Below are positions 468 to 27,524 of a stretch of DNA of 30,847 nt, piece after piece. The notes beneath the pieces are model-generated. The model did not search any database and was not told the origin of the DNA. It saw only the letters and a list, made by a program, of their open reading frames with translations. Position numbers and translations under genes: made by a program. Within the stretch, counting starts at the first letter, position 1, and each line of letters starts with the position of its first letter. The DNA comes from a virus. Location of the stretch: the IMG/VR virus record IMGVR_UViG_3300036978_000118, positions 1 to 30,847 of that record; one strand, written 5' to 3'.

Positions 468-1040
468 TTATTTCTTAGTTTTCTTTATTTTCTTTTCTTT
501 ATTGAGTTTTGCCTTTTCCTTTAAAGACATCTTCTCTATATCATGTTCTGATAAAAAGAATGTGTTCTGCAAAAACTCAGTAAAGGTAGAAGATCCTTGG
601 TTGTGTTTCAGCCAGTCAACAAATTTACCATCAACATCATTCATCTGAATACACTTGTACTTGATATATGATTGCTTCTTCTCTCTCTCTATTCGACGAA
701 GGAAAGCATAATAAATTATTTGAGTGAAATATGAGAATGGGTTGCTTGACTTTTCTGGATCAAAGTTATGGGCGTATGATATACAATTTTCTATACCATC
801 CCCAACCATATCCTCTTTGAATGGATAATTGATGAAATTTGGTCTGTTTGACAGGTTTTCTGCAATAAGGATAAAGGCTCTTGCTATAGCATCAGAGACG
901 GGTGGCTTTGCATTCCCCTTCTTCTCTGCTTTTATTACATCCTTCTTCCATTCGGTCATCCACTCCAAGAAGTCCTTATTATTTACATAATGTTTGATGA
1001 CCTTGGTTGGTTTAGTTGGTTTTTCTATATCTTCTTCCAT
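468..1040 (-). CDS. 55: Late-transcription sigma factor gp55
   Basis: A 190-residue protein matching the T4-superfamily sigma factor that directs host RNA polymerase to late promoters. The diagnostic core lies at about residues 67-130: NFINYPFKEDMVGDGIENC, then NFDPEKSSNPFSYFTQIIYYAFLRRIEREKKQ. This is the sigma region-2-like segment (core binding and -10 melting) shared by marine T4-like phages. The C-terminus is very basic (KLNKEKKIKKTKK), and the N-terminal segment with YVNNKDFLEWM is typical of the marine versions. No Shine-Dalgarno sequence precedes the ATG; instead a sigma70-type promoter ends 7 bases upstream, so the message may be leaderless. This is consistent with host-type expression before late transcription starts, while the TATAAATA boxes elsewhere in the window would be targets of gp55. 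It lies between the 241-residue unknown gene and gp47. Confidence 0.92.
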   Translation of the reverse strand: MEEDIEKPTKPTKVIKHYVNNKDFLEWMTEWKKDVIKAEKKGNAKPPVSDAIARAFILIAENLSNRPNFINYPFKEDMVGDGIENCISYAHNFDPEKSSNPFSYFTQIIYYAFLRRIEREKKQSYIKYKCIQMNDVDGKFVDWLKHNQGSSTFTEFLQNTFFLSEHDIEKMSLKEKAKLNKEKKIKKTKK

Positions 1041-11633: not shown

Positions 11634-14402
11634 TCAACAGAGCCAGTTTTTTGGTTTAAATTTGTCGAACGTGCTATCATTTTTTCCGAACCACATGTCT
11701 TCTCCGTCCCACTCACTACTTGAATTATGTCCGTCATCTATGAACATGGGAAGGATTTCGTTTGCTATATCAACTATTTCTTTATTAAAAATTTCAACAC
11801 GGACATCTCTGTCGGTTAGTCCCTCAAAGAAGTCCTGCCGAGTTGCCCATGCAAACAAGACAAGACACATGACCAGATCGTCTGTATGGCCAACATCTGC
11901 GACATAAGAAGACCCGTCACTTATAAAGGTGGTAAGTTCATCTATAATATCAGAATCACTGACTAATAATTTATCTTGTTCGATCAGGTTCTTTAGAACC
12001 GAGCAGCCGAGCTTCTTGACTGGGATTGTTGTTCTAACACCCAGAGCCACCTTTTTGGCTCCCATTCCAGTCTCTGTTATAATCTGGCCCTTCATTCCCA
12101 TGTAGGCAGACTTGATCAGATTCTCATATGATAGATCGTAGTGTAGAATATCGGCAACCTGACTTCCCAGATCGTTTAGTTCTACCAACACATATGCATT
12201 ATTATATTTCTTTCCAACCGACTGGATGTATGATGGAAGCAACATCGGGGAAATAATATTATTCTTAAACCGAGCCGCTATGGTGAATGGCATTGTGGTG
12301 ATATCAAACACCACGAACGCACTATTGTCTCCACCCTGCCCTCTGGCGACATCTACCGTCATAAAGTATTGACGGTCAGCAGTTCCGTTTACATCAGATC
12401 CCTTTACTGGTTCCTCATATATGGCCAGACCTTCACCATTTTTTTGTTTGGCCTTTCCATAGGCCATAACATTTAACTTCTCAGCCTCAATTAAGGTGTT
12501 GGCAGATCCAATGAACGAACAATTAAATTCCGCATCGAACTGCCTTTCACTTGTGTTTCTAATCTGTAGTTCTTTCCATGGATCATCTCTTAGAGGACCA
12601 CCTGGATATTGTGGAACAGATCTCCAATCAACCTCAAATGCAACATACTCATTGCTATTGGATATTGATCCTTTCCAGAGCTGGTAAAACATATTCAATC
12701 CGCGAGGGGTTGAAATGATAATCATCTGTGTGGTCTGCCCTGCGGTTATAGTTGGGTACACGGACGAGAAAAATTCTTCACCAACCTGTGTTGGAATGTG
12801 GGCAAATTCATCCAAAAATATGCAATTTTTTACAAAAATATTATTGGCATAGAAGGCGTGAAGGTCTTCTACCTCTAATAAATCATAAACATCAATAACA
12901 TCACCATCATATTTTTCTATTAGACATGTACGACCCATCTTTGTTATTATTTGATGGGAATTTATTAGATTATCTGCACAAATATATCCAACAGAGGTGG
13001 AGATTTTATGATCGGGCGTACAAACAAGATTAGAACCATCAGCAAACTTAAGTTTTATTGTTGGTTGGTTTTGTATTCTACTTAATCCTTCAAAGGATTT
13101 AAATCCTTTGGGTGTAAGTACTTGCCATCTCTCATTTTTGTTCCCTTGTTCCATGGACCACCCTGACGGGCGATCCGTTCTTTCGCGGCCAAACTCATTC
13201 GCAGTTTCGATTCGGGACTTCGCTTCATTCCACGATGTGTCTCTGCCATTTTTGCTATCTTCACTGGATTCTTGTTTATCTTCTCCATATGCTCTTTGGT
13301 TTTCTTTTTCCCAGTTAGACCCATAGAAATATTTTCTCCATGTTCTTTGCTCTTCTTTTTTCCAAGACTTGCTTTGCTCATTTTTTCCTTCGTTTCCACT
13401 GAACACTTTTTCCCGGTTTGCATTATTCTCATAGCCTCGGAATAATTTTTCTTCGCTTCCGATAGAGAAATCATTGATAATTTCGCCCATTTCCCACAAC
13501 GACCCTTGAGCATCAGATAATACGCACAACGCATCTTCAGATTGTCGTGCCCCTCCAAAAAGTGTGGAAGAAGTCGATGAGCCAATAAATGCTCTCGTAT
13601 TGTTAGTATAACCATATTGTTCCTCGTATTGTCCCCACCCAAAGACCTCGGAATTATATGGTGTTTTTCTACTACTTCTCCTATCAGAGTCCGTGTCTGA
13701 GCTTTCTCCATCAGCGAAAAGTACCACTTCTTGTATTTGTTTTCTATCATTCTCATCACTATATTTATGATTTTTAGAAATTCTAGACGAATTTGCGTAC
13801 AGATCTGATATGCTTATATCTTCAATTTCACCAGTAATTGGATTTTTTATTGTAACAATAGAATCACCAGAAATACAATTAAATGATCCTCCACGAATAG
13901 CAGATGATGATGTGGCAGATGCCAGAATTTTAGATCCATTTTCTAAAACAATGGTTCCTTTATTCCATTCAACAACACCTTGCTGTAACCAGTGTGGAAG
14001 ATGTTCGTATGATTCCTTTATTCTTCCCAAGATGTCTCTTGCAGTATTGAGTTTGTTTGCCAGAATAGCAACACTCATATTCTGATTGAATAAAATCTTA
14101 TGCAATAGATAACAACAACCTACAGTTGTGGTTTTACCTGATTGTCTTCCCATTTTTCCGATGACAAATCTGTTGTTCACCATTATCTTCACCAATTCTT
14201 CTTGGTATGAATAAAGATCGAATGGAGATACTCCCTTATCCAATGTGATAACCTTTACATATTTCTTTGCGAAATAGATAGGATCTTTGGCACACTTCAT
14301 GTATTCAGAGACCTGCTTTTTGGTAAACTGGTGCTTATAGCCAATAGGCTTTAAGTTCATATTACCAAAATAACCAGGCTTATTCTGCTTGTGCATCCCC
14401 AT
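11634..14402 (-). CDS. 17: Large terminase gp17, precursor with intein
   Basis: A 922-codon precursor; removing the 351-residue intein leaves about 571 residues, a normal gp17 size. The ATPase domain has Walker A GRQSGKTT (85-92) and, after the intein, Walker B IFLDEFA (528-534) followed by the ISTPRG coupling motif. The nuclease domain shows VDVARG (Asp684), VLVELND (Glu741) and GHTDD (Asp842), fitting T4 Asp401, Glu458 and Asp542. gp17 cuts concatemeric DNA and drives it through the gp20 portal with gp16. The start is ATG 14402, with AGGAG eight bases upstream; a TTG at 14405 is the alternative. It overlaps gp16 by 23 bases. The intein splits SFN from CIFLDE, directly before the catalytic Walker B strand, so the unspliced protein should be inactive. 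Confidence 0.95.
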   Translation of the reverse strand: MGMHKQNKPGYFGNMNLKPIGYKHQFTKKQVSEYMKCAKDPIYFAKKYVKVITLDKGVSPFDLYSYQEELVKIMVNNRFVIGKMGRQSGKTTTVGCCYLLHKILFNQNMSVAILANKLNTARDILGRIKESYEHLPHWLQQGVVEWNKGTIVLENGSKILASATSSSAIRGGSFNCISGDSIVTIKNPITGEIEDISISDLYANSSRISKNHKYSDENDRKQIQEVVLFADGESSDTDSDRRSSRKTPYNSEVFGWGQYEEQYGYTNNTRAFIGSSTSSTLFGGARQSEDALCVLSDAQGSLWEMGEIINDFSIGSEEKLFRGYENNANREKVFSGNEGKNEQSKSWKKEEQRTWRKYFYGSNWEKENQRAYGEDKQESSEDSKNGRDTSWNEAKSRIETANEFGRERTDRPSGWSMEQGNKNERWQVLTPKGFKSFEGLSRIQNQPTIKLKFADGSNLVCTPDHKISTSVGYICADNLINSHQIITKMGRTCLIEKYDGDVIDVYDLLEVEDLHAFYANNIFVKNCIFLDEFAHIPTQVGEEFFSSVYPTITAGQTTQMIIISTPRGLNMFYQLWKGSISNSNEYVAFEVDWRSVPQYPGGPLRDDPWKELQIRNTSERQFDAEFNCSFIGSANTLIEAEKLNVMAYGKAKQKNGEGLAIYEEPVKGSDVNGTADRQYFMTVDVARGQGGDNSAFVVFDITTMPFTIAARFKNNIISPMLLPSYIQSVGKKYNNAYVLVELNDLGSQVADILHYDLSYENLIKSAYMGMKGQIITETGMGAKKVALGVRTTIPVKKLGCSVLKNLIEQDKLLVSDSDIIDELTTFISDGSSYVADVGHTDDLVMCLVLFAWATRQDFFEGLTDRDVRVEIFNKEIVDIANEILPMFIDDGHNSSSEWDGEDMWFGKNDSTFDKFKPKNWLC
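13082..13756 (-). CDS. HNH homing endonuclease with NUMOD3-like repeats, nested in the gp17 intein in the +1 frame
   Basis: A 224-residue protein read one base ahead of gp17 and lying wholly inside the intein. The HNH core is EKHHIIPRSLGG...N..NMVILTIREHLLAH (about 30-60), a pattern common in T4-like phage endonucleases. Three or four basic repeats follow, of the type GKK-S-x-E-x-x-E-K-M-S-K-A-S (about 115-205), resembling NUMOD3 DNA-binding modules. Starts GTG 13759, ATG 13756 and ATG 13750 are all possible; none has a good ribosome site, but a CATAAATA box ends five bases before 13756. It ends with TAA inside the codons for the intein strand KGFKSFEGL. By hand count, sample 60-base blocks are 42-57% GC inside and 25-35% in the flanking intein, pointing to later acquisition. 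It probably cuts intein-free gp17 genes so that the intein spreads. Confidence 0.88.
   Translation of the reverse strand: MRMIENKYKKWYFSLMEKAQTRTLIGEVVEKHHIIPRSLGGDNTRNNMVILTIREHLLAHRLLPHFLEGHDNLKMRCAYYLMLKGRCGKWAKLSMISLSEAKKNYSEAMRIMQTGKKCSVETKEKMSKASLGKKKSKEHGENISMGLTGKKKTKEHMEKINKNPVKIAKMAETHRGMKRSPESKLRMSLAAKERIARQGGPWNKGTKMRDGKYLHPKDLNPLKD
13762..13769 (-). promoter_or_regulatory. Late-promoter-like box (CATAAATA) before the nested HNH gene
   Basis: One mismatch to TATAAATA. CATAAATA-TAGTG-ATG has the same 5-base spacing to the ATG as the gp3 promoter, so +1 would fall on the HNH start codon at 13756. It lies inside intein coding sequence, so chance is possible. Confidence 0.3.
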
Positions 14403-14844
14403 CAATAAGTCTCCTGTGTTGCGCTCTATCCTTATTAATCATATCTTGTAGGTCCGATGTTGATCCCACATAAATTGAGTTATTTGTTATATTAGTACTC
14501 TTATCCTTCATCATGTTGGCATTCTTCTCATGTAGGCCAATCAGATCCTTGTTTATATCTGACATGGTTTTCATCATGAGTGCCGCTACCTCGTAGGCTC
14601 TAGGAGAGTCACTGGCCTCGGCAACTTTCATAATTCCATCTAGAGCATTCATTCCATTAGCAATGAGCTCCTTCATATTTGAACGAGCAATAGTGAAATC
14701 AATTTCTAGTTTCTCAACTTTGATTTTCTTTGCTTCTCTTTTTATAGCCTTTGAGGGGTCTATCATAGAAGATGGATCAAAGGAGATGTCTAGTGCTTTG
14801 GATAATTTTTCTGATGGTTCTTCATCAGATGATAGGTTTGTCAT
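14380..14844 (-). CDS. 16: Small terminase subunit gp16
   Basis: A 154-residue, mostly helical, charged protein directly upstream of and overlapping the large terminase gene, the invariable gp16 position. The central segment has FTIARSNMKELIANGMNALDG and later DSPRAYEVAALMMKTMSDINKDLIGLHEK, a helical pair like the oligomerisation core of T4 gp16 (164 residues), which forms rings that recognise DNA ends and stimulate gp17 ATPase. The C-terminus has NNSIYVGSTSDLQDMI, found in marine T4-like versions. It overlaps gp15 by 20 bases at its start and gp17 by 23 at its end, so the three are translated as a block. Confidence 0.88.
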   Translation of the reverse strand: MTNLSSDEEPSEKLSKALDISFDPSSMIDPSKAIKREAKKIKVEKLEIDFTIARSNMKELIANGMNALDGIMKVAEASDSPRAYEVAALMMKTMSDINKDLIGLHEKNANMMKDKSTNITNNSIYVGSTSDLQDMINKDRAQHRRLIDGDAQAE

Positions 14845-17961: not shown

Positions 17962-19485
17962 TTATGTTAAAATTATTCTCCTAAACAACATGAAGTTCAC
18001 TGTTCTATTTAGGTTAAAAGTAGTATTTTTTCCAAAGTTTTCTCCAGTTAATAATGACTGGCCGTACAATAGATTCATAGAATCGAAGGTATTTTCCCCA
18101 TTCGGGAATGATTTGAGGTACTTATCTGTCAAAAATGTGGTTGAACAGAAAACATTATTTAGATCAATAACATCAGACAGAGTAGAATTTGTTCTATGTT
18201 GCTCGGCCAAGAACATCATCTCAAGTATAGATGGAACATAATAGTCGATAAATCCATTTCTGAGCTTACCTGTAATTGTGTTTAATGTTCTTGTCTGTAG
18301 TTTAGTTGTTGTGGATAAGTCTCCATAACAATTTAAATATCCATCATAGTATGATGTCGTGAAAGATGATATCGTGTCTGTAGTATAGGCCAGAGGGGAC
18401 TTTAAGTATGTTTTATTAACTATAATTGCCCATGACTTATAAGCAGATTCATCTGATGTAGTTACAAATGTAGACGATGGAGACGAGAAATTTAATGCAC
18501 CATATACTCTAGAGAATGAGGTGGCATTCGTCTTCTTTGGTGAAAAGTTACCAATATAGATTCCACCCTGAAACTCATCACCTACAGAAAGCCCTAGAGC
18601 ATTAAATTCTGCTTGTGAGTATGATGTAGAATTTAGATATCCAGAAGTTTTAGTTGGATTTTTTGGAGCATATTCGTGATCACAGTATGCAACATCAGCA
18701 TCAACTGTTATTGGATCTACCCAATATCCAGTACATAAATAGCTTGGCTTTATATTGCAACTATACTCTAATGTGTCAGTGTCTAGAGTATAGCATGGCC
18801 CCAAAGAATCTTCGGCAAAGGCATCTGATGATGATATCATTCTTGATGTTAGACCAGAGCTGGAGCATGATGCTATTGGAGCACCTTCTACTATTTCCTT
18901 TGAACAGGCCATATTTACATTGAATGTGGTATCATAAAATGTATCTTCTCCACTGGTGTCTATAATTGCTAAGTTGGCACACTCTCTTGGTGAACATACA
19001 TGCTGACATGTAACTCCAATAGCAGATCCATTCTGTATGGTCAATGAACAACATGCATTTGGTATACGAACGTCTATTGTTGTTTCTGCACTATTAATAG
19101 TAACTGATTTTTGACATAATGTAACAGAATCATTTATTGTATTCCACTGACCACCAATTCTAGTGCATTCACATTCAGTTATATTCGGTTGAATTCCAAA
19201 AGAATTACTTCGGAAAAATGTGTTAGATGTAGAGTATGGTAAGGCATTAATGGCTGCTACCTTCTGTTCTGTGCTTAGATATGCACATGCACAGCAATAT
19301 CCTTTTATTGCAGATGTTGGGCATGGGGCATCAAGATCTGTTAGGAAAATACCAGAACGAGAGAAACATTCGTGGAATGTTATATTCTCACTTGTTCCAT
19401 CTGAGAAACAACACTTACCAACCTGCTTTATGTCGGTTCCATAATCAAATGTACTTTTAATTCTTGATCTGAATTGTAATGTCAT
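17962..19485 (-). CDS. Cys-rich structural protein with degenerate DUF1566-like C-terminus
   Basis: 507 residues. The N-terminal half (about 23-230) has Cys-rich modules: GKCCFSDGTSENITFHEC, GYCCACAYLSTE, CECTRIGGQW and NACCSLTI. From about 290 there is a module like the fibre proteins upstream: LSVGDEFQGGIYIGNFSP, then WAIIVNK and GFIDYYVPSILEMMFLAEQ. This corresponds to the GG-[IV] start and DWY-[IV]-PS-x-x-E-L core of DUF1566, but the later WSS and RPVR motifs are missing. There is no collagen-like stretch. It starts as ATGA overlapping the stop of the 1659-residue gene. It is probably a virion appendage subunit working with its neighbours; the exact role is unknown. Confidence 0.75.
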   Translation of the reverse strand: MTLQFRSRIKSTFDYGTDIKQVGKCCFSDGTSENITFHECFSRSGIFLTDLDAPCPTSAIKGYCCACAYLSTEQKVAAINALPYSTSNTFFRSNSFGIQPNITECECTRIGGQWNTINDSVTLCQKSVTINSAETTIDVRIPNACCSLTIQNGSAIGVTCQHVCSPRECANLAIIDTSGEDTFYDTTFNVNMACSKEIVEGAPIASCSSSGLTSRMISSSDAFAEDSLGPCYTLDTDTLEYSCNIKPSYLCTGYWVDPITVDADVAYCDHEYAPKNPTKTSGYLNSTSYSQAEFNALGLSVGDEFQGGIYIGNFSPKKTNATSFSRVYGALNFSSPSSTFVTTSDESAYKSWAIIVNKTYLKSPLAYTTDTISSFTTSYYDGYLNCYGDLSTTTKLQTRTLNTITGKLRNGFIDYYVPSILEMMFLAEQHRTNSTLSDVIDLNNVFCSTTFLTDKYLKSFPNGENTFDSMNLLYGQSLLTGENFGKNTTFNLNRTVNFMLFRRIILT

Positions 19486-22400
19486 GATGGGCTACAATCT
19501 TCGTACAGGGTAGAATCAATAACTGAACAGTCTAGAGAAATACAAACAAATGTTCCATCACCAACAGGAATACTCTTATTTTTGAATGTTGAATCGAAAG
19601 AGCCTTCTGGACAACCTCCGGGGCATTCCGGAATAGGATATATTGACAATAAATCACTAACTCCAAAACCAACACAACTTCTATTTTGAGGTCCGGCTGT
19701 GAATATGTTATTATATGCTGTAATCAAATCATTATCAATACTTGTTGATCCATAATTACATGATTTATCAGAAAAAATACATCTGTGTAACATACAATTT
19801 GTAAATCTTCCAAAGAATATATTGGCTGATCCTCCTGGAGTAGTTGAAACCGGGTCATCACAACCACCATAACGAAGTCCACTTGCATTCCAATGATTTA
19901 TTCCATCATAATATCCTGAAAGTGTAATAGCACCATCATCATCACGTATAGTAACTCGCTTCATTCGTATAATAAAATTATTTTTAACAGAATCATATAT
20001 TGCTATAACTCCTCTTAAGCGAAATTCTTCAAGTATAGGTTCTATTAGTGCACCAGGAGAAAAGTCACTACACCTATCACATCCACCTGCAACGGTGGAG
20101 CAAGGATTAGTAGAAGTTGGACATGGAGCAGCGGCGACAAATGATTCTCCCTTACATGAGCACCCAAAAGGCGGTTTCTCTCCGACTTGTCCAAAATCTT
20201 CTACCGAAACAAATGGGTATGCTCTATATGCACAGTTTTCTTGCCAAGAAATACTTTCTTCCCCTTGAACACATCCACCACACGAACATTTTTCTTGTGA
20301 TCCTAATCCATTACCAAAATTAGTATTAATAATTTTATCACCACAATAATTGTTGTCAAAATACATACCATGACATGCGGCCAGATATGGTATTACACAA
20401 TAAAAATTGGATACATAATTTGGAGCCTCTAGAGAACACACACAAGGTGAGATATTTGGTAGACCTTGAGTTGGATCACATCTATCAGGTGCACCAAATC
20501 TCAAAATATATGAATTACTCAAAGTTCCAGAATTAATATCTAATTCTGTACCAAGATATGATTCAGATAATTTCACCAAAGATTTATCAGTATTTGTGGA
20601 CGTTCCCAACAGGTCAGCACTACTATAGGTTATACCAATCATAGTAGGTTCGTGTGCGTTAGTAAAAATAACCATACGCAATTTATTGATATGATTTACA
20701 AATCTATGGTAAAATTCATTAGGTTCTGTAATATTTGAAGGAATAAGTAACTGCTCGGTTGGGTTCTTTTGTTCTGCATCTATTAACTCCTGCGTCACCA
20801 TATATTGTTTATAATTTTTTAGTTTAACACAAAAATTATATTTGGTATTTCCGTTGGAAGATAACTCTGAGGTTATTGTTGTGATTGCTGGGTTTTCACT
20901 TCCTCTTGGATCCGCAAATACACCATTTACTTGTTTTTCTGTAAATTGCAACTCATTATAAGCAAATAAACCAACACCTGCATTACTATAGATTATCTCA
21001 GTTCCACCATTAGTTAATGTTGGTGATTCCAAAATAATTGCTGCTTTTCTCGTCTTTCTTAAAGGAGATGAAATAATACCATTTAATGTGTCTGTCCATC
21101 CAGGTTCAACAGAATTATTTCTCCACACATAATCACCAGCATAATCCATTGTTAATGGATGCCCAATTCCAGTAGACGAATCTATATTATTACCTACCCA
21201 TCCATTAGAAAAATTATTTAGGATGGCATTTTTTGCATAAAAACCAATACTTTCATTTCCTGTAATAGTGTGGGTTACTGATCCAGTAGTTCTGATACTA
21301 ACACCTAAGTCAGAATAACCAGTAAACTTATATGTGTTATATGTATCTACACCATATGTAAATGTATGATTTAATTGGTTATCTGTAATATCAGTTGGTA
21401 TTGTTTTTGTAAACAGTAAATATGGTGATTTTACGACTGCGGATGATGTGTTATTATAAGTCAACCCTTCTGATATCGCTGGGGCATCAATAGCCTGATA
21501 TAATATTTTATTATAATTTGTTGAATATGTCATTGAGGACGGTACGGTGTTTGTTGTAACTTTTCTATACCGTAATCCAATATCATCTGAATGATAATAT
21601 CGTGCTGAGTTCTCTGGAGAAAATGAACCTGGATACTCATAATATGCTGGGTATACGTTTCCAGTATTTGAATTATCCGCATCAATATTTAATATTTTAT
21701 TTAGTTTAGCAGAAGAACCACTCAACAAGGAAATTGAATTTCCATTATTATGAGATACTACAGAACCACCATCATATATTCCTTTTCCTCTAGAATTTAT
21801 TCCATATAACGGACAATTCAACTCTTTACGTAAATCATCAGTTTTAAACTGTATGTTGGTGTCTGTGTTTGTTATATGATAAAAAGCGTCTTGCCCATTA
21901 TTTTTAATATAAGTATTCAAATATCCATACGGAAGATAATTATAGTCTCCATCATAATCTGGATATAGAACACTAATAGTATTCCAATAACTAATCTCAG
22001 CTGTACTAAGTTCATTTGCTTCGTCACTTGTTGTTGAAGTCACAGGAAAATCTGTTCCAGAATCCACATCTCTATATGTTAGATTAAACTCTGCCATATA
22101 ATTTCTAGCAAAATTCTTAGGATACCATGTTCTTAAAAGATATAATTTAAATGAATGCTTTTGAGTTGTATGTTCAGTCATTCCTGAAGTATCAATAGAA
22201 AAACAAAATTGTAAATCATTACCATCAGCACTTGTATGAAATCCTGGACCAGTTACATCAATGTAATAATCCATAGAATTTAAGGATACGTGTGTGTTTA
22301 GTATGTTACCAGCCGTATTATCATATAGATCTGTCGAAGTTGAGTATGCACTTGTTGTATTTTTTCTAGATATAGTCGATGGTTCTGTATCGGTAGACAC

Positions 22401-24461
22401 ATCAACACATTGAGTGGTTGGTTCTTCAGTTCTAATACTCTCACAGTCCCCTGTAGAGATACAATTACATGGATCATCAATACAAACAGCAGAAGTTGCG
22501 GTAGGAGTATATCCTTGGGGACACGTAGAAATATCATCTATTTGTATACATGGTGTGATAGGATCTGCACAATTACAGCATATCCCAGGAATAGGAGTAG
22601 GGCAATCAGGACAAGGTCCACCCTTATCTGGGCATGATGTACATGGATCACATTGCGAAGACGAACACAGGACTCCTTGAGTCCATACGCCATTAAAATT
22701 ATCACATACTGTATTCGATGTATTATAACAGGCAGTTTGTTCTGAATCGACATCATAATAACAACATGTACCTTGTTCACCAACGCAGTTTAATATAGCA
22801 GGTGGAAGTGAAGTACAGTCTGAAAAACTTTCCGAAGGACAGCTACTAGTAGAGGTTAAATTTTCATTGGCAGTCCATATATTAGTTGTACACTCACCCT
22901 GTAATGTTATACTACATTCAATTGCTTCACCATTACACTTACAACAAGTACCATATAATGGTGGGCCAGGTGTTCCTATACACGCACAGTTAACACTTTC
23001 ACATATCTCTCCAGCACCCATGAATACTCCAACAGAAGCATTACATTCGGTTAGTGTCTTTTGAGTACATGCTGCATCTTTGCAACATGCTCCAACCTTA
23101 ATATTTTGCACACAGCAATCTACATCAGAGCATGGACCAGCAAATGCCAACCCACCCAAAATTTCTTCACATTCTATCTTGGTAAATTCATCACCAAGAC
23201 ATTCGCCATTCTTACAGCACGATACCTTTGTTCCAAGACATTCATCAAAGCACAGACGTTGTAAGTTTGTTCCATTGGGATTTGCTCCGAATGATCCACA
23301 GGTAACACCAAACAAGAAATTACCACCAAAAGCAATACATTCAGCATAATTTGTATTTTCAATACATTGCCCATTTGAGCAACAGACACCTAATGTTGAA
23401 CCACATGCGGAATTGCATGATTGTAGTGGGCTAAATGTTCCTGATAAGACATCACACTGATTCTTTGAGGAATAGTCTAAACAATTCTGACCACTAGGTC
23501 CAGAATAACAACACGATCCAAACAAACCTCTGAGTTCACATGTTTCTTTTGTTGTATCAACACCTCTGGCAGCGACAACTGCATACCATGAGGCTCCTTG
23601 GTCGAATGATGTTATATTCAACACAGACTTACCACATGTCAGATAATTTTCACCATCCTCAAAGTATGTGTTAGCAGGGAAATTCCATATATCATCACTC
23701 TCCGTTATAAGAGTAAACGATACAATTTCACTTGGCTTAAATGTTCCATTGAATGCTGAAATTCCGTTAGGTGTTCTGATATAGAACGAACCAGCATCAT
23801 CAAGATTCAATACAACAGGTTGTGCTGAATCTGTTTTATGTGTCGGAGCAACATATTTTACCTTTGCTCTTGGAAGTATCTTAGAAAAACTAGGAGGAGA
23901 ACTAGATCTCTCAAAATTCAACACACCATCGTAAAATGTACCAGAGGTAATTCCTATGGTGGTGCTAGAAATCTGATTACTTGTTTTGAGGTATATTAAT
24001 GTATTATCAGTCAGTGACGCAGAGTCTGCGGCTCCACTTGCTGGGGTGTATATTGAATTGATATAAATTGCTTCAGAATCTTCTGTTATGACCAAAGACC
24101 CAGAAGCCGAGAGTCCCTTCATGACAAAGGAGCTAGTTCCATTTCCAGACTGCAGAAATGAGAAGGTGGTTACATCTGTATTTTCAGCTAAACGATCAAC
24201 AACATCAACGGTTGTGTGTTCTATTGCCGTAAGTCCACCAAATGCACCTAGAACAGTTAATTCTACTCCATCAGAAAGAAGAACCGTGGCCCCTGCTCCA
24301 TAAAATGAAATATCTGATATGTGTGGTGCAAGAGGACCTGTTGCTCCTGTTGCCCCGAAAGTTGATCCAGTTGGTCCTGTTGGGCCAGTAGGTCCCATTG
24401 AACCAGTAGGTCCCACTGGGCCAGATGATAATGTGGTAAATCCAATTGCGCTGCTAGACAT
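19482..24461 (-). CDS. Giant Cys-rich tail-fibre-like protein with collagen-like repeat
   Basis: 1659 residues, the largest gene here. A short collagen-like Gly-Pro-Thr stretch lies at about 14-43. A beta-rich region with no Cys until about 275 follows. From about 315 to 700 there are seven disulfide-type modules, roughly GxCC-x(n)-C-x(n)-C-x5-G-x-[FW]-x(n)-C-x3-C (GSCCYSG, GVCCSNG, VSCCKNG, GACCKDA, GTCCKCN, GTCCYYD, GICCNCA). The rest is a long Ser/Thr/Asn/Tyr-rich beta region and a last Cys-rich part (from about 1370) with CSCKGE, CSTVAGGCDRC and a C-terminal CPEGS segment. There is no signal peptide or membrane helix, as expected for a virion protein. The position upstream of gp13 equals the T4 gp10-12/wac block, so a fibre, whisker or adhesin is likely. 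No catalytic motif was seen. Confidence 0.8.
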   Translation of the reverse strand: MSSSAIGFTTLSSGPVGPTGSMGPTGPTGPTGSTFGATGATGPLAPHISDISFYGAGATVLLSDGVELTVLGAFGGLTAIEHTTVDVVDRLAENTDVTTFSFLQSGNGTSSFVMKGLSASGSLVITEDSEAIYINSIYTPASGAADSASLTDNTLIYLKTSNQISSTTIGITSGTFYDGVLNFERSSSPPSFSKILPRAKVKYVAPTHKTDSAQPVVLNLDDAGSFYIRTPNGISAFNGTFKPSEIVSFTLITESDDIWNFPANTYFEDGENYLTCGKSVLNITSFDQGASWYAVVAARGVDTTKETCELRGLFGSCCYSGPSGQNCLDYSSKNQCDVLSGTFSPLQSCNSACGSTLGVCCSNGQCIENTNYAECIAFGGNFLFGVTCGSFGANPNGTNLQRLCFDECLGTKVSCCKNGECLGDEFTKIECEEILGGLAFAGPCSDVDCCVQNIKVGACCKDAACTQKTLTECNASVGVFMGAGEICESVNCACIGTPGPPLYGTCCKCNGEAIECSITLQGECTTNIWTANENLTSTSSCPSESFSDCTSLPPAILNCVGEQGTCCYYDVDSEQTACYNTSNTVCDNFNGVWTQGVLCSSSQCDPCTSCPDKGGPCPDCPTPIPGICCNCADPITPCIQIDDISTCPQGYTPTATSAVCIDDPCNCISTGDCESIRTEEPTTQCVDVSTDTEPSTISRKNTTSAYSTSTDLYDNTAGNILNTHVSLNSMDYYIDVTGPGFHTSADGNDLQFCFSIDTSGMTEHTTQKHSFKLYLLRTWYPKNFARNYMAEFNLTYRDVDSGTDFPVTSTTSDEANELSTAEISYWNTISVLYPDYDGDYNYLPYGYLNTYIKNNGQDAFYHITNTDTNIQFKTDDLRKELNCPLYGINSRGKGIYDGGSVVSHNNGNSISLLSGSSAKLNKILNIDADNSNTGNVYPAYYEYPGSFSPENSARYYHSDDIGLRYRKVTTNTVPSSMTYSTNYNKILYQAIDAPAISEGLTYNNTSSAVVKSPYLLFTKTIPTDITDNQLNHTFTYGVDTYNTYKFTGYSDLGVSIRTTGSVTHTITGNESIGFYAKNAILNNFSNGWVGNNIDSSTGIGHPLTMDYAGDYVWRNNSVEPGWTDTLNGIISSPLRKTRKAAIILESPTLTNGGTEIIYSNAGVGLFAYNELQFTEKQVNGVFADPRGSENPAITTITSELSSNGNTKYNFCVKLKNYKQYMVTQELIDAEQKNPTEQLLIPSNITEPNEFYHRFVNHINKLRMVIFTNAHEPTMIGITYSSADLLGTSTNTDKSLVKLSESYLGTELDINSGTLSNSYILRFGAPDRCDPTQGLPNISPCVCSLEAPNYVSNFYCVIPYLAACHGMYFDNNYCGDKIINTNFGNGLGSQEKCSCGGCVQGEESISWQENCAYRAYPFVSVEDFGQVGEKPPFGCSCKGESFVAAAPCPTSTNPCSTVAGGCDRCSDFSPGALIEPILEEFRLRGVIAIYDSVKNNFIIRMKRVTIRDDDGAITLSGYYDGINHWNASGLRYGGCDDPVSTTPGGSANIFFGRFTNCMLHRCIFSDKSCNYGSTSIDNDLITAYNNIFTAGPQNRSCVGFGVSDLLSIYPIPECPGGCPEGSFDSTFKNKSIPVGDGTFVCISLDCSVIDSTLYEDCSPS

Positions 24462-24476: not shown

Positions 24477-27400
24477 TTAAATTTCTGGTGTACATCCACT
24501 TGGGCAAGAATTACATTGACTAAAATCAGTATCTTCCAGAATTGCTTCTATATTATCATCAACACATCCAACGATTATTGGTATTCTGCGAACTGGTCTA
24601 AGTTTTCCTACCCCAGTTTTTCTATTAATAGATTGAACCAGACCAGAATTTTCAGAATTGTCAAATACCTGTACTAACATGTTCTCTCCAGCGGCAACGG
24701 CTATTGAGAGTTCATATGCAGTCTTGTTGTTAAGACCAGAATAATCTGAAGCAATAAATCTATATTTCTGATTTTTATTAAGAGCACTTGGAGATTCCTG
24801 TAGAGAATAACTAGAATAATCAAGATGATTGGTAGCACTCCAACTCTTTAGATATGGAATGCTAGTAGAACTCCAGTAATTTGTGGTACTTAGAATAGAT
24901 CCATTCCCAAGAAGAATTCCACTATTAAGTTCTTGTCTATTTTCAAAAATATAATTTAATTCAATTATTGATGGGATATACCAATCATTGTATCCACCAT
25001 AAGAATTTTGGTTTAGTATTGATATTTGTTTTGTGCAGCTATTTTGAGGATTATTTACATCCCACATCTCTGAATATTTTGATTTGAAGGTATTGATATT
25101 ACTTTCTACAGCAGACTCAACTACTGAGAAATTCCAATTACTTCTTTTTGAAATATTTGCTGTATTATAAAAACAGAATCTATCAAATGCCTTTGCATCA
25201 GATACCCCATTTACATCTCTGAACCACAGTTTTGGATTTTCTTTAGACGATTCGTCAAAAATTCTGGTTGAGAGAAGACCATCAACACCAAATGTCGTTA
25301 TTGGTTCACTATTATAGCTACCAATTCTTGCTCTTCCCTCTTCCATACCCCATGATAAATTTTGCTCATCATATGCATCCTCTGGAGCAACAATTAGTGC
25401 CCATAGCATGTGTATGGATTTTTCACCATAGTGTTGCTTTGCGAGATACTTATATAGTGGTGAACTTGTTGAGAGTTTCTCTGATATAATATAATTTAGA
25501 TCGGCTACATCATTTCCTATTGGATATGCAAAGGTTCCATTGGCCGAATTATAGTCAGCCGAACCAACATATTGAATATTATCCCCCCACAATACTGTAG
25601 TGGATACTCCCTGTATGGTGGTTACATCGGTAACTGTTTGTTGAATATAAGGAGTACCATACTTTAACAAACATCTCTTAAGAGCATTATTAAAATAATT
25701 TAAATCCATTGTGGTAGATGATTTAGTTCTAATAAAATACTCAAAATTCACATCTGTTGCATATGCACCAAAAGTTCCTAAATTGGCTCCATTAGATCCA
25801 CCACAATTCTTGAACGGCCAATAATACGAATTTGGACCCGTTACATTACCTCTTGGATAGACTCTACAGGCCAATGGTTGACCATATGCAGTCAGAGGAT
25901 TACCATATGATGAACATGGGGAAGGCATTCCTATGACCCCTACAAGGTAACCACCACCCATTTTTGTTCCTATCGGAAGACACGGCTGATTATTTGTAAC
26001 CTTACAGTCTACAGACTCATTAAAATATGTCTCAATGAAATTTCTTCCACAACATTCAACTTCAGAACAATTTGATCCAGGACCATGAAAAATTCCAGTA
26101 CAAGCTGACGGATGAACGTTATCAGTACATGTATATTCACCATCAGTTTGTCTGGTGCAACAGGCTCCACTAATTGCAGCACAACACTCAGCATCTGTGT
26201 TTGATGTACATGTTCCTGCTGAAAACACGGACCCCGGAAAAGAAGAACATTCCTGTGCCGTTAGATCGAAGCAGAACCCTCTAAAACAACACTTTCCTAA
26301 AGCTGGGTTTGAACTGACACATGTAGCTGGACAAGTAAAACTGGAAGAATTATTTCCACCGGCAGCACAAATCTCTCCAGGAAAGAATGTTCCCTTATAC
26401 TGTAGACATTTCTCTATTGATGAGTTAATGCACTTTCCGTTAACACAACAGGCTCCCTCTGCATAACAATCACCAGATGAAATTCTATCCAAACATGCAG
26501 TAGTACTGAAACTTCCCCCCACATTGGAGCAGTAAGATTCACTAACATAGTCCATGCAGTTGATTTCTGTTGTATCACTCTGACAGAAACAACAAGATCC
26601 GAAATTCTCTGAAGTTAGAGCCTGTGGTGTAAATGAAGCACCTTGACTGAATGTTATTTCTGGGAATTTGAATGTTAAAGTATCAGAACCAGTCACACCC
26701 AAATATAGAGTAGTATTTGCTTTTCTAGTAGACTCAGTTAATTGATATTTATCATTGTTGATATAGAAGTTGCCATAATCAACATTAAAGAATGCAAATC
26801 CAGTAACACCTGTCTGCCCAAGAAGATTTTGACCCGAAAAATCATATGTTGGTGCATTTACGTTTTGATTGTTGTGTATTGGATGGCGGTCTGCGGCCAT
26901 ATCAACACTAAGGAGTCCACCAGTTCCAGAAGTATACACTGAACCATCTATTGCATAGATGACAGAACCAGATTTATATAATATCTCACCGGTATTACCA
27001 ACTCTATTATTAGTAAATGTTTTGCCTACAAGGTAGATGTATGATGCGTCTGTGCTTATTCCAACTAGTGCTGGACCGTTGGCTTCAAAGGTTCGTATCT
27101 TTAAGGCCAACTCATCGTTTATTGGATCAGAACCGACAAAGTTTGGTTGTATCACAACCTTATTATTATTAACAAAAGAATCTACAAAGCTATATAAAAC
27201 CGAATGACCGTGAAGTGACACCGTACCACTAGTCAATCCTCGTCCTATCACCACTGATTGAGGAACTCCGTTTATGAAACTTACACCAGTTGATCCAAGA
27301 AATTGAATGTACTTGGTTTTACCACCAGTAAGGGTGAATGTTATTCCAGAATTTAAATATGCGGCTGATATTATTCCAAGCCCAGTTGGTCCATATGGAC

Positions 27401-27524
27401 CAACATCAGCGTTTCCAGTGGCTCCTGTTGAACCAGTTACTCCATTTGTACCAGTAGCACCAGTAGGTCCTATTAAAATAGTACCATATACTGGGATTAT
27501 AGAACTTCTTGGAAATGCACTCAT
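24477..27524 (-). CDS. Collagen-like, Cys-rich tail fibre protein with DUF1566-like head
   Basis: 1015 residues in a clear domain order: a collagen-like GPTGATGTNGVTG stretch (19-48); a beta-rich, Cys-free region (50-305); Cys-rich modules (309-497: GSCCFCQ, GACCVNG, GKCCFRG, GACCTRQ, ending in a CC pair); and a DUF1566-like region (about 510-1000). The last starts GTKMGGGYLVGVI, continues with WALIVAPED and GYNDWYIPSIIELNYIF, and ends with YWSSTS and KLRPVRRIPI. DUF1566 is a C-type-lectin-related module common in phage and bacterial surface proteins, so the C-terminus is the likely receptor-binding end. A Cys-rich coda (CNSCPSGC) closes the protein. The start ATG shares its A with the upstream gene's stop (TAATG), and an exact late promoter lies 7 bases above. 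Confidence 0.85.
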   Translation of the reverse strand: MSAFPRSSIIPVYGTILIGPTGATGTNGVTGSTGATGNADVGPYGPTGLGIISAAYLNSGITFTLTGGKTKYIQFLGSTGVSFINGVPQSVVIGRGLTSGTVSLHGHSVLYSFVDSFVNNNKVVIQPNFVGSDPINDELALKIRTFEANGPALVGISTDASYIYLVGKTFTNNRVGNTGEILYKSGSVIYAIDGSVYTSGTGGLLSVDMAADRHPIHNNQNVNAPTYDFSGQNLLGQTGVTGFAFFNVDYGNFYINNDKYQLTESTRKANTTLYLGVTGSDTLTFKFPEITFSQGASFTPQALTSENFGSCCFCQSDTTEINCMDYVSESYCSNVGGSFSTTACLDRISSGDCYAEGACCVNGKCINSSIEKCLQYKGTFFPGEICAAGGNNSSSFTCPATCVSSNPALGKCCFRGFCFDLTAQECSSFPGSVFSAGTCTSNTDAECCAAISGACCTRQTDGEYTCTDNVHPSACTGIFHGPGSNCSEVECCGRNFIETYFNESVDCKVTNNQPCLPIGTKMGGGYLVGVIGMPSPCSSYGNPLTAYGQPLACRVYPRGNVTGPNSYYWPFKNCGGSNGANLGTFGAYATDVNFEYFIRTKSSTTMDLNYFNNALKRCLLKYGTPYIQQTVTDVTTIQGVSTTVLWGDNIQYVGSADYNSANGTFAYPIGNDVADLNYIISEKLSTSSPLYKYLAKQHYGEKSIHMLWALIVAPEDAYDEQNLSWGMEEGRARIGSYNSEPITTFGVDGLLSTRIFDESSKENPKLWFRDVNGVSDAKAFDRFCFYNTANISKRSNWNFSVVESAVESNINTFKSKYSEMWDVNNPQNSCTKQISILNQNSYGGYNDWYIPSIIELNYIFENRQELNSGILLGNGSILSTTNYWSSTSIPYLKSWSATNHLDYSSYSLQESPSALNKNQKYRFIASDYSGLNNKTAYELSIAVAAGENMLVQVFDNSENSGLVQSINRKTGVGKLRPVRRIPIIVGCVDDNIEAILEDTDFSQCNSCPSGCTPEI

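What the first reader, a model, noticed from the sequence alone, without database searches (positions are those of the whole stretch)
12825..13877. Homing endonuclease overprinted inside an intein: two proteins from the same 675 bases in different frames
Seen: the gp17/intein frame is uninterrupted for 351 codons. A complete HNH/NUMOD3-type gene (13082-13756) is read in the +1 frame within it. The HNH frame reads as a real protein; the intein frame there reads as featureless hydrophilic sequence. The open intein frame is not expected by chance. A stop arises wherever an HNH codon ending in T precedes one starting AA, AG or GA. By hand count about 50 of 225 HNH codons end in T and about 70 encode Lys, Asn, Asp or Glu, yet no such junction exists. 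Under independence this is of the order of 1e-8. Known: intein endonucleases are normally fused in frame, and 'fractured' genes have split-intein halves with a separate endonuclease ORF between them. Inference: this is an intermediate in which a free-standing endonuclease gene invaded a mini-intein and selection kept the host frame open as a long linker.
Basis: partly seen in the sequence, partly recalled or inferred. Interest (0 to 1): 0.9.

Follow-up and report, generated by a model that had tools for sequence, protein, structure and literature searches.

The report
Intein with endonuclease overprinted inside it
In a T4-like phage's DNA-packaging gene, a self-removing protein segment (an intein) and a DNA-cutting gene that can spread it are written over the same ~670 letters in different reading frames; at least 25 other phage contigs keep the same arrangement, so it is a lasting design and not an accident or a passing stage.

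Summary
The window's gp17/TerL gene (minus strand 14405-11634) holds a contiguous 351-aa intein (12825-13877). An intact 224-aa HNH endonuclease gene (13082-13756) lies in its +1 frame. The same architecture, always +1, with no stop or frame-breaking indel, occurs in 25 other viral contigs (HNH identity about 43-64%). None of 2098 risky codon junctions contains a stop, against 36% T use at equivalent extein junctions. AlphaFold gives a confident Hint splicing fold split around a disordered linker; the overlapping frame gives a confident HNH domain. The intein frame is kept open but otherwise drifts: its hydrophilicity is a by-product of the HNH. Intein and HNH move together (96-100% nt identity between phages whose exteins are mostly 66-82% identical), a homing signature. 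The overprinted form is one clade, so 'intermediate' is not supported. One member (L054) lost the HNH by a 684-nt in-frame deletion and kept the mini-intein. The HNH sits between splicing blocks A and B, where sister inteins at this TerL site are split. A T4-type late promoter box lies 13 nt upstream of the HNH ATG. Splicing, HNH translation and cutting are inferred. Nearest precedent: the ShiLan out-of-frame HNH insertion, which has no intein.

The parts
13878..14405 (-). TerL (gp17) N-extein, ATPase half, ending ...SSSAIRGGSFN
   Evidence: Pfam Terminase_6N 9e-19; PHROG terminase large subunit 1.5e-60
12825..13877 (-). Contiguous 351-aa intein (C1 ... N351), frame uninterrupted
   Evidence: 0 stops; Hint fold predicted with Foldseek matches to gp41-1, NrdJ-1, VidaL and Cat inteins; sequence relative in PDB 6dsl CatC, E 3e-10, found with the HNH-free relative L054
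13788..13877 (-). IntN part of the splicing domain (block A, CISGDSIVTIKN..., about 30 aa)
   Evidence: AF2 pLDDT 78-94 for residues 1-30; alignment A2
13164..13787 (-). Intein-frame linker, residues 31-238, predicted disordered; mostly overlaps the HNH gene
   Evidence: pLDDT below 50 throughout, blocks mostly 23-39; composition equals no-stop synonymous shuffles
12825..13163 (-). IntC part of the splicing domain (block B TPDH, blocks F/G, ...YANNIFVKN)
   Evidence: mostly pLDDT 85-95; alignment A1
13082..13756 (-). HNH-NUMOD3-like homing endonuclease gene (224 aa plus stop), +1 frame of the intein; its 3' end runs into the IntC coding sequence
   Evidence: phrog_655 homing endonuclease 3.8e-30; HNH residues invariant in 17 aligned members; AF2 mean pLDDT 78.6, HNH domain mostly above 90
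13762..13769 (-). CATAAATA, T4-type late promoter box, 13 nt upstream of the HNH ATG
   Evidence: same spacing as the gene at 19482-24461 (13 nt) and close to 24477-27524 (15 nt); NATAAATA is the cyanophage late promoter (PMC2984593)
13782..13793 (-). Conserved nucleic-acid motif AAYTCRTCTARA upstream of the HNH gene, function unknown
   Evidence: second Ser codon TCT in 24/24 contiguous family members that carry the motif
11634..12824 (-). TerL C-extein, nuclease half, starting C(+1)IFLDEFAHIP
   Evidence: Terminase_6C 3.9e-13
468..1040 (-). gp55-like late sigma factor, the expected reader of NATAAATA boxes
   Evidence: phrog_234 1.6e-56

Best explanation
This is a mobile intein in a T4-like phage TerL gene whose homing endonuclease is encoded out of frame, in the +1 frame, over an internal linker of the intein instead of being fused in frame. 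Most likely working: (1) the TerL mRNA is read through in frame as one 923-aa precursor (shown: the frame is open in all members; inferred: it is translated); (2) the Hint domain, made of residues 1-30 and about 239-351, folds around a ~208-residue disordered loop and splices the exteins into functional TerL (fold predicted; splicing inferred from conserved residues and from TerL being essential in T4); (3) the HNH protein is made by independent internal initiation at an ATG inside the intein sequence, in this phage probably from its own gp55-type late promoter box 13 nt upstream, giving a leaderless or near-leaderless late message (inferred); (4) the HNH cuts intein-less TerL genes and the intein plus HNH cassette is copied in as one unit (inferred from the sequence signature of horizontal transfer). 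Selection on the intein frame in the overlap amounts to 'no stop codon, no frameshift'; selection on the HNH frame is ordinary protein-level constraint.
For: Open intein frame with +1 HNH in the window and 25 other contigs, length always a multiple of 3. Null models rejected. Natural control: free-standing HNH homologues have closed alternate frames. AF2: Hint high confidence, linker disordered, HNH domain confident; Foldseek hits inteins at probability 1.00. Splicing residues: C1, T and H of block B in the aligned members, Cys+1 and C-terminal Asn or Gln in all contiguous members. HNH catalytic-type residues invariant. Homing signature: L003 v L005 intein 96-100% nt against exteins mostly 66-82%, with a gradient downstream; L013 v L014 alike. 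HNH loss by in-frame deletion in L054, in a TerL flank near-identical to L004. In several members (L008, L009, L010) an in-frame stop lies just upstream of the HNH ATG, so frameshift fusion cannot make the HNH there and internal initiation is required. NATAAATA box at -13 in the window and 9 of 19 relatives examined, at -37 with a good SD in L011; gp55 sigma in the window.
Against: No protein or RNA data. The window's penultimate intein residue is Lys and not His, which is uncommon though shared by relatives. The promoter box is absent or altered (NATATATA) in other members, and the divergent ones mostly lack it. No Shine-Dalgarno sequence at the window's HNH ATG. HNH specificity for the TerL site is not tested.
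Confidence: 0.82

Rival explanations
1. The intein no longer needs the linker frame: TerL is made from two separately started pieces (IntN half ending somewhere, IntC half from an internal start) and the intein trans-splices; the open frame is incidental.
For: Related inteins at the same TerL site are split, with IntC started separately. Engineered and natural TerL inteins trans-splice at this kind of break (PMC11766414).
Against: 0 of 26 members have a stop or frame-breaking indel in the linker frame although 12-29 stops are expected per member tested.
Confidence: 0.05
2. The HNH is made by +1 programmed frameshifting from the TerL-IntN frame, giving an IntN-HNH fusion like the in-frame IntN-endonuclease fusions of sister inteins.
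For: Sister group has IntN fused in frame to HNH or GIY-YIG endonucleases. A conserved motif AAYTCRTCTAR lies just upstream.
Against: In L008, L009, L010 and others a stop in the HNH frame lies between the motif and the HNH start, so a shift there would abort. Start ATG, late promoter box or SD present instead.
Confidence: 0.08
3. The insert is removed at RNA level (group I intron or bypass element) and the intein frame is not translated across it.
For: HNH genes are common passengers of phage introns (general knowledge).
Against: No intron family in Rfam near the locus. A spliced or skipped insert would not need an open frame in 26 of 26 members. The HNH-less derivative L054 leaves an in-frame scar, not a precise excision.
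Confidence: 0.02
4. The intein frame is an assembly or sequencing artefact, or a decaying pseudogene.
For: All members are metagenomic contigs; no isolate carries a close copy.
Against: 26 contigs from many samples agree in frame, with purifying selection on the HNH protein (codon position 3 changes most) and conserved splicing residues.
Confidence: 0.02

Closest known systems
ShiLan domain and Pacc40 gp60 insertions (Arsenault, Gosselin and Gogarten 2025, PMC11855218)
   Same: HNH endonuclease hidden out of frame in an insertion whose host-frame reading stays open; inferred homing
   Different: Those insertions sit directly in a non-essential methylase, have no splicing domain and are thought to stay in the protein; here the host is an intein in the terminase, so the linker should be removed, and the HNH appears to carry its own late promoter box
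Fractured genes: split inteins with a free-standing homing endonuclease between the halves (Dassa et al. 2009, NAR; title seen, paper not held; features from general knowledge)
   Same: Endonuclease gene lies between intein halves of a phage gene; such split versions exist at this very TerL site
   Different: Here the intein gene is not split: one open frame runs through the endonuclease gene
Atypically split TerL inteins AceL-TerL, GOS-TerL and engineered Cat (PDB 6dsl)
   Same: TerL host; break after a ~25-37 residue IntN; nearest solved sequence relative is CatC, E 3e-10
   Different: Those are split; judged from extein sequence recalled from memory they probably sit at another TerL site (site 3 here); this intein is contiguous
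Canonical maxi-inteins (bifunctional, in-frame endonuclease)
   Same: Intein plus endonuclease move as one unit
   Different: Canonical: endonuclease domain in the same frame between blocks B and F; here another frame and between blocks A and B
T4 mobD-like / phrog_655 HNH homing endonucleases
   Same: HNH nuclease domain with repeated NUMOD3-like DNA-binding region
   Different: Those are free-standing genes, about 31-36% identical in the listed isolates; the free-standing homologues examined have closed alternate frames

Membership tests
Intein (Hint splicing domain) | N-terminal nucleophile C/S and block A | tested here: met
   C1 invariant
Intein (Hint splicing domain) | Block B TxxH | tested here: met
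   T287 and H290 invariant
Intein (Hint splicing domain) | C-terminal Asn or Gln and +1 C/S/T | tested here: met
   N or Q and Cys+1 in all contiguous members; the uninvaded site mostly carries C, M, L, V or I at +1
Intein (Hint splicing domain) | Hint fold | tested here: met
   AF2 plus Foldseek, gp41-1 intein E 7e-8
Intein (Hint splicing domain) | Protein splicing activity | not testable with these tools
   needs expression
Canonical bifunctional intein | Endonuclease domain in the intein's reading frame | tested here: not met
   HNH in +1 frame in all 26 members
Canonical bifunctional intein | Endonuclease between blocks B and F | tested here: not met
   It lies between blocks A and B; the B-F stretch has no insert
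Fractured gene with split intein | Host gene broken into two ORFs | tested here: not met
   Single 923-aa ORF; met in sister loci such as L062-L065 and L183-L200
Group I intron carrying an HNH gene | Intron RNA structure | tested here: not met
   No intron match in Rfam at E up to 1
ShiLan-type out-of-frame HNH insertion | HNH out of frame with host frame open | tested here: met
ShiLan-type out-of-frame HNH insertion | No splicing domain in the host frame | tested here: not met
   Hint domain present
HNH homing endonuclease (phrog_655, T4 mobD-like) | HNH motif residues and repeated DNA-binding region | tested here: met
HNH homing endonuclease (phrog_655, T4 mobD-like) | Cuts the cognate empty site | not testable with these tools
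   horizontal-transfer signature only

The most novel reading that the evidence does not exclude
Overprinting protects the endonuclease. Because the HNH gene shares its DNA with the frame of an essential gene, any frame-breaking indel that would inactivate it also destroys TerL, so the usual decay of endonucleases in the homing cycle is slowed and loss is limited to missense or stop substitutions and rare in-frame deletions (as in L054). The dual coding would then be a selected, stable third way of housing a homing endonuclease in an intein, beside in-frame fusion and gene fracture.
Probability: 0.3. Interest if true: 0.88.

Novelty: new variant of a known kind. Interest (0 to 1): 0.8.

Why it matters
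Inteins were known to house endonucleases by in-frame fusion or by gene fracture. This is a third arrangement, recurrent and long-lived, in an essential phage gene, with empty, mini, overprinted, IntN-fused and fractured states all present at one insertion site. It makes the origin of split inteins and the decay of homing endonucleases directly testable, and it is a clean case of two proteins sharing one sequence where one frame needs only to stay open. It also warns that in-frame searches will miss endonucleases of this kind.

Tried and rejected
Group I intron or bypass: no Rfam support, and the frame would not need to stay open. Frameshift production of the HNH at the conserved NSSR motif: stops intervene in L008 and L009. 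Upstream ORF coupled to the conserved TAR stop: +2-frame ORFs are only 2-14 codons in all but one member. Selection for a hydrophilic linker: observed hydropathy equals no-stop synonymous shuffles, mean z -0.26. Extra constraint on intein-frame first positions: synonymous third-position identity in the HNH (0.90 / 0.59 in the 0.9 and 0.6 identity bins) matches the single-coded IntC (0.91 / 0.57), so only the no-stop constraint is visible. The apparent excess over the exteins reflects co-mobility of the intein. Bacterial and archaeal genomes: no relative found. Isolated phages: only distant free-standing mobD-like HNHs. Dassa et al. 2009 could not be read.

Full report
What was checked. The TerL (gp17) gene runs on the minus strand from 14405 to 11634 as one 923-aa frame. 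Pfam and PHROG place terminase ATPase and nuclease domains on either side of residues 177-527. The inserted 351 residues begin with Cys and end with Asn before a Cys (12825-13877). A 224-aa ORF in the +1 frame, 13756 to 13082, matches phage homing endonucleases (phrog_655, 3.8e-30).

Chance. Reshuffling synonymous codons of the HNH, or redrawing them from extein codon usage, gives 16-17 stops in the intein frame on average and never zero in 20,000 trials. The same holds in each of 14 relatives tested. Across 25 members, third-position T is never followed by AA, AG or GA (0 of 2098 junctions), whereas in the exteins 968 of 2705 such junctions carry T. Free-standing homologues of the HNH offer a natural control: their alternate frames are closed.

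It is a family. Searching viral contigs with the HNH and with IntC gave 25 further contigs (besides near-identical and partial ones) with the same anatomy: N-extein, IntN, HNH in +1, IntC, C-extein, no stops, length a multiple of three (L002 begins at the intein). HNH identity to the window is about 43-64%. No relative was found in bacterial and archaeal genomes, and isolated phages have only distant free-standing HNHs.

Structure. With an alignment of the family, AlphaFold2 gives the intein frame a Hint domain (residues 1-30 and 239-351, mostly pLDDT 85-95) and a completely disordered stretch between (31-238, below 50). Foldseek finds gp41-1, NrdJ-1, VidaL and Cat inteins. The +1 frame gives a confident HNH domain followed by a less confident helical repeat tail. 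The endonuclease thus sits between blocks A and B, after about 40 residues of IntN, not at the canonical place between blocks B and F. That is near the place where AceL/GOS-TerL-type inteins are split (IntN 25-37 residues; PMC11766414); the nearest solved sequence is CatC of that kind.

States at one site. The same TerL position is empty in many contigs. It holds a contiguous overprinted intein in 26, a 145-aa mini-intein in L054, and split inteins in 31 contigs. In 21 of these the endonuclease (HNH or GIY-YIG) is fused in frame behind IntN and stops before a separately started IntC; in 10 it stands free between the halves. No contiguous in-frame endonuclease was found there, within a search that was seeded by HNH and IntC similarity. 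In an IntC tree the overprinted forms and L054 make one group (support 91/85), with L054 nested beside L003, L004, L005 and L007 (100/99). L054 has a 684-nt in-frame deletion with a remnant of the HNH 3' end in the +1 frame, and its TerL flank is almost identical to that of L004. So the mini-intein is derived from the overprinted form. The arrangement is stable and old, not a fleeting intermediate. Whether the ancestor was a mini-intein or a split intein is not settled.

Selection. The HNH evolves as a protein: codon position 3 changes most and position 2 least, with invariant HNH residues. The intein frame in the overlap shows no constraint beyond being open: its hydropathy equals that of no-stop synonymous shuffles, and HNH third positions (intein first positions) change as fast as ordinary synonymous sites in single-coded IntC.

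Mobility. Intein and HNH are 96-100% identical in L003 and L005 while the exteins are mostly 66-82% identical, rising to 90% just downstream of the insertion; L013 and L014 behave alike. This is the signature of recent transfer of the whole cassette between diverged phages, as expected of homing. Cutting itself is not shown.

Expression of the HNH. In the window CATAAATA lies 13 nt upstream of the HNH ATG. NATAAATA is the late promoter of T4-like cyanophages (PMC2984593), and the window encodes a gp55-like late sigma factor. Of eight minus-strand boxes in the window, five lie within 29 nt upstream of gene starts, among them two large genes at 13 and 15 nt without a Shine-Dalgarno sequence; the HNH box is a sixth. 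The total number of boxes is not above a first-order Markov expectation; it is their position that is non-random. Of 19 relatives examined, nine have the exact box at the same spacing and one (L011) has it farther up with a good ribosome-binding site; several others have NATATATA or nothing. In L008-L010 the HNH frame is closed just upstream of its ATG, so independent initiation is needed. Overall, internal initiation is well supported; the late-promoter step is likely in this phage but not general.

Comparison with the known. The closest precedent is the ShiLan domain, an out-of-frame HNH insertion in a mycobacteriophage methylase (PMC11855218), which lacks any splicing domain. No paper found in the searchable library describes an endonuclease overprinted on an intein; that library lacks most subscription journals, so priority is not proven. 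The finding is a new variant: an intein with its homing endonuclease in another frame.

Limits. All members are metagenomic contigs; no RNA or protein evidence exists here. Splicing, HNH translation and cleavage are inferences.

Noticed in passing
window 13782-13793 (-): Nucleic-acid motif AAYTCRTCTARA in the IntN coding sequence about 25-35 nt upstream of the HNH start: Ser codon TCT in 24/24 family members (31% usage in exteins), not conserved in split relatives. Possibly an operator like the one I-TevI uses to repress itself, or an RNA element; unexplained.
   Followed up: partly
L001 3084-4627, L108 1975-3342, L054 2644-3574, L066 880-1831: A second TerL intein site at the Walker A region: LAGLIDADG-like in-frame inteins (L054, L066) or split inteins with another nuclease-like ORF between the halves (L001, L108).
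   Followed up: partly
L006 6299-7317, L009 3861-4883, L064 4648-5611, L066 2401-3937, L069 3859-4317, L108 3903-4318: A third TerL intein site, always split in the loci seen: with GIY-YIG-like or other nuclease-like ORFs between the halves, or with no endonuclease at all (L069, L108); resembles AceL/GOS-TerL.
   Followed up: partly
L061-L065, L143-L144, L153-L154, L159, L163-L164 and others: Split TerL inteins in which an HNH or GIY-YIG endonuclease is fused in frame to the C-terminus of IntN, followed by a stop and a closely spaced or overlapping start of IntC.
   Followed up: partly
window 19482-24461 and 24477-27524 (-): Two large genes have NATAAATA 13-15 nt before ATG and no Shine-Dalgarno sequence, suggesting leaderless or near-leaderless late mRNAs in this phage.
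   Followed up: no
L013, L014, L146, L149: Inteins ending in Gln (HQ|C) and not Asn.
   Followed up: no
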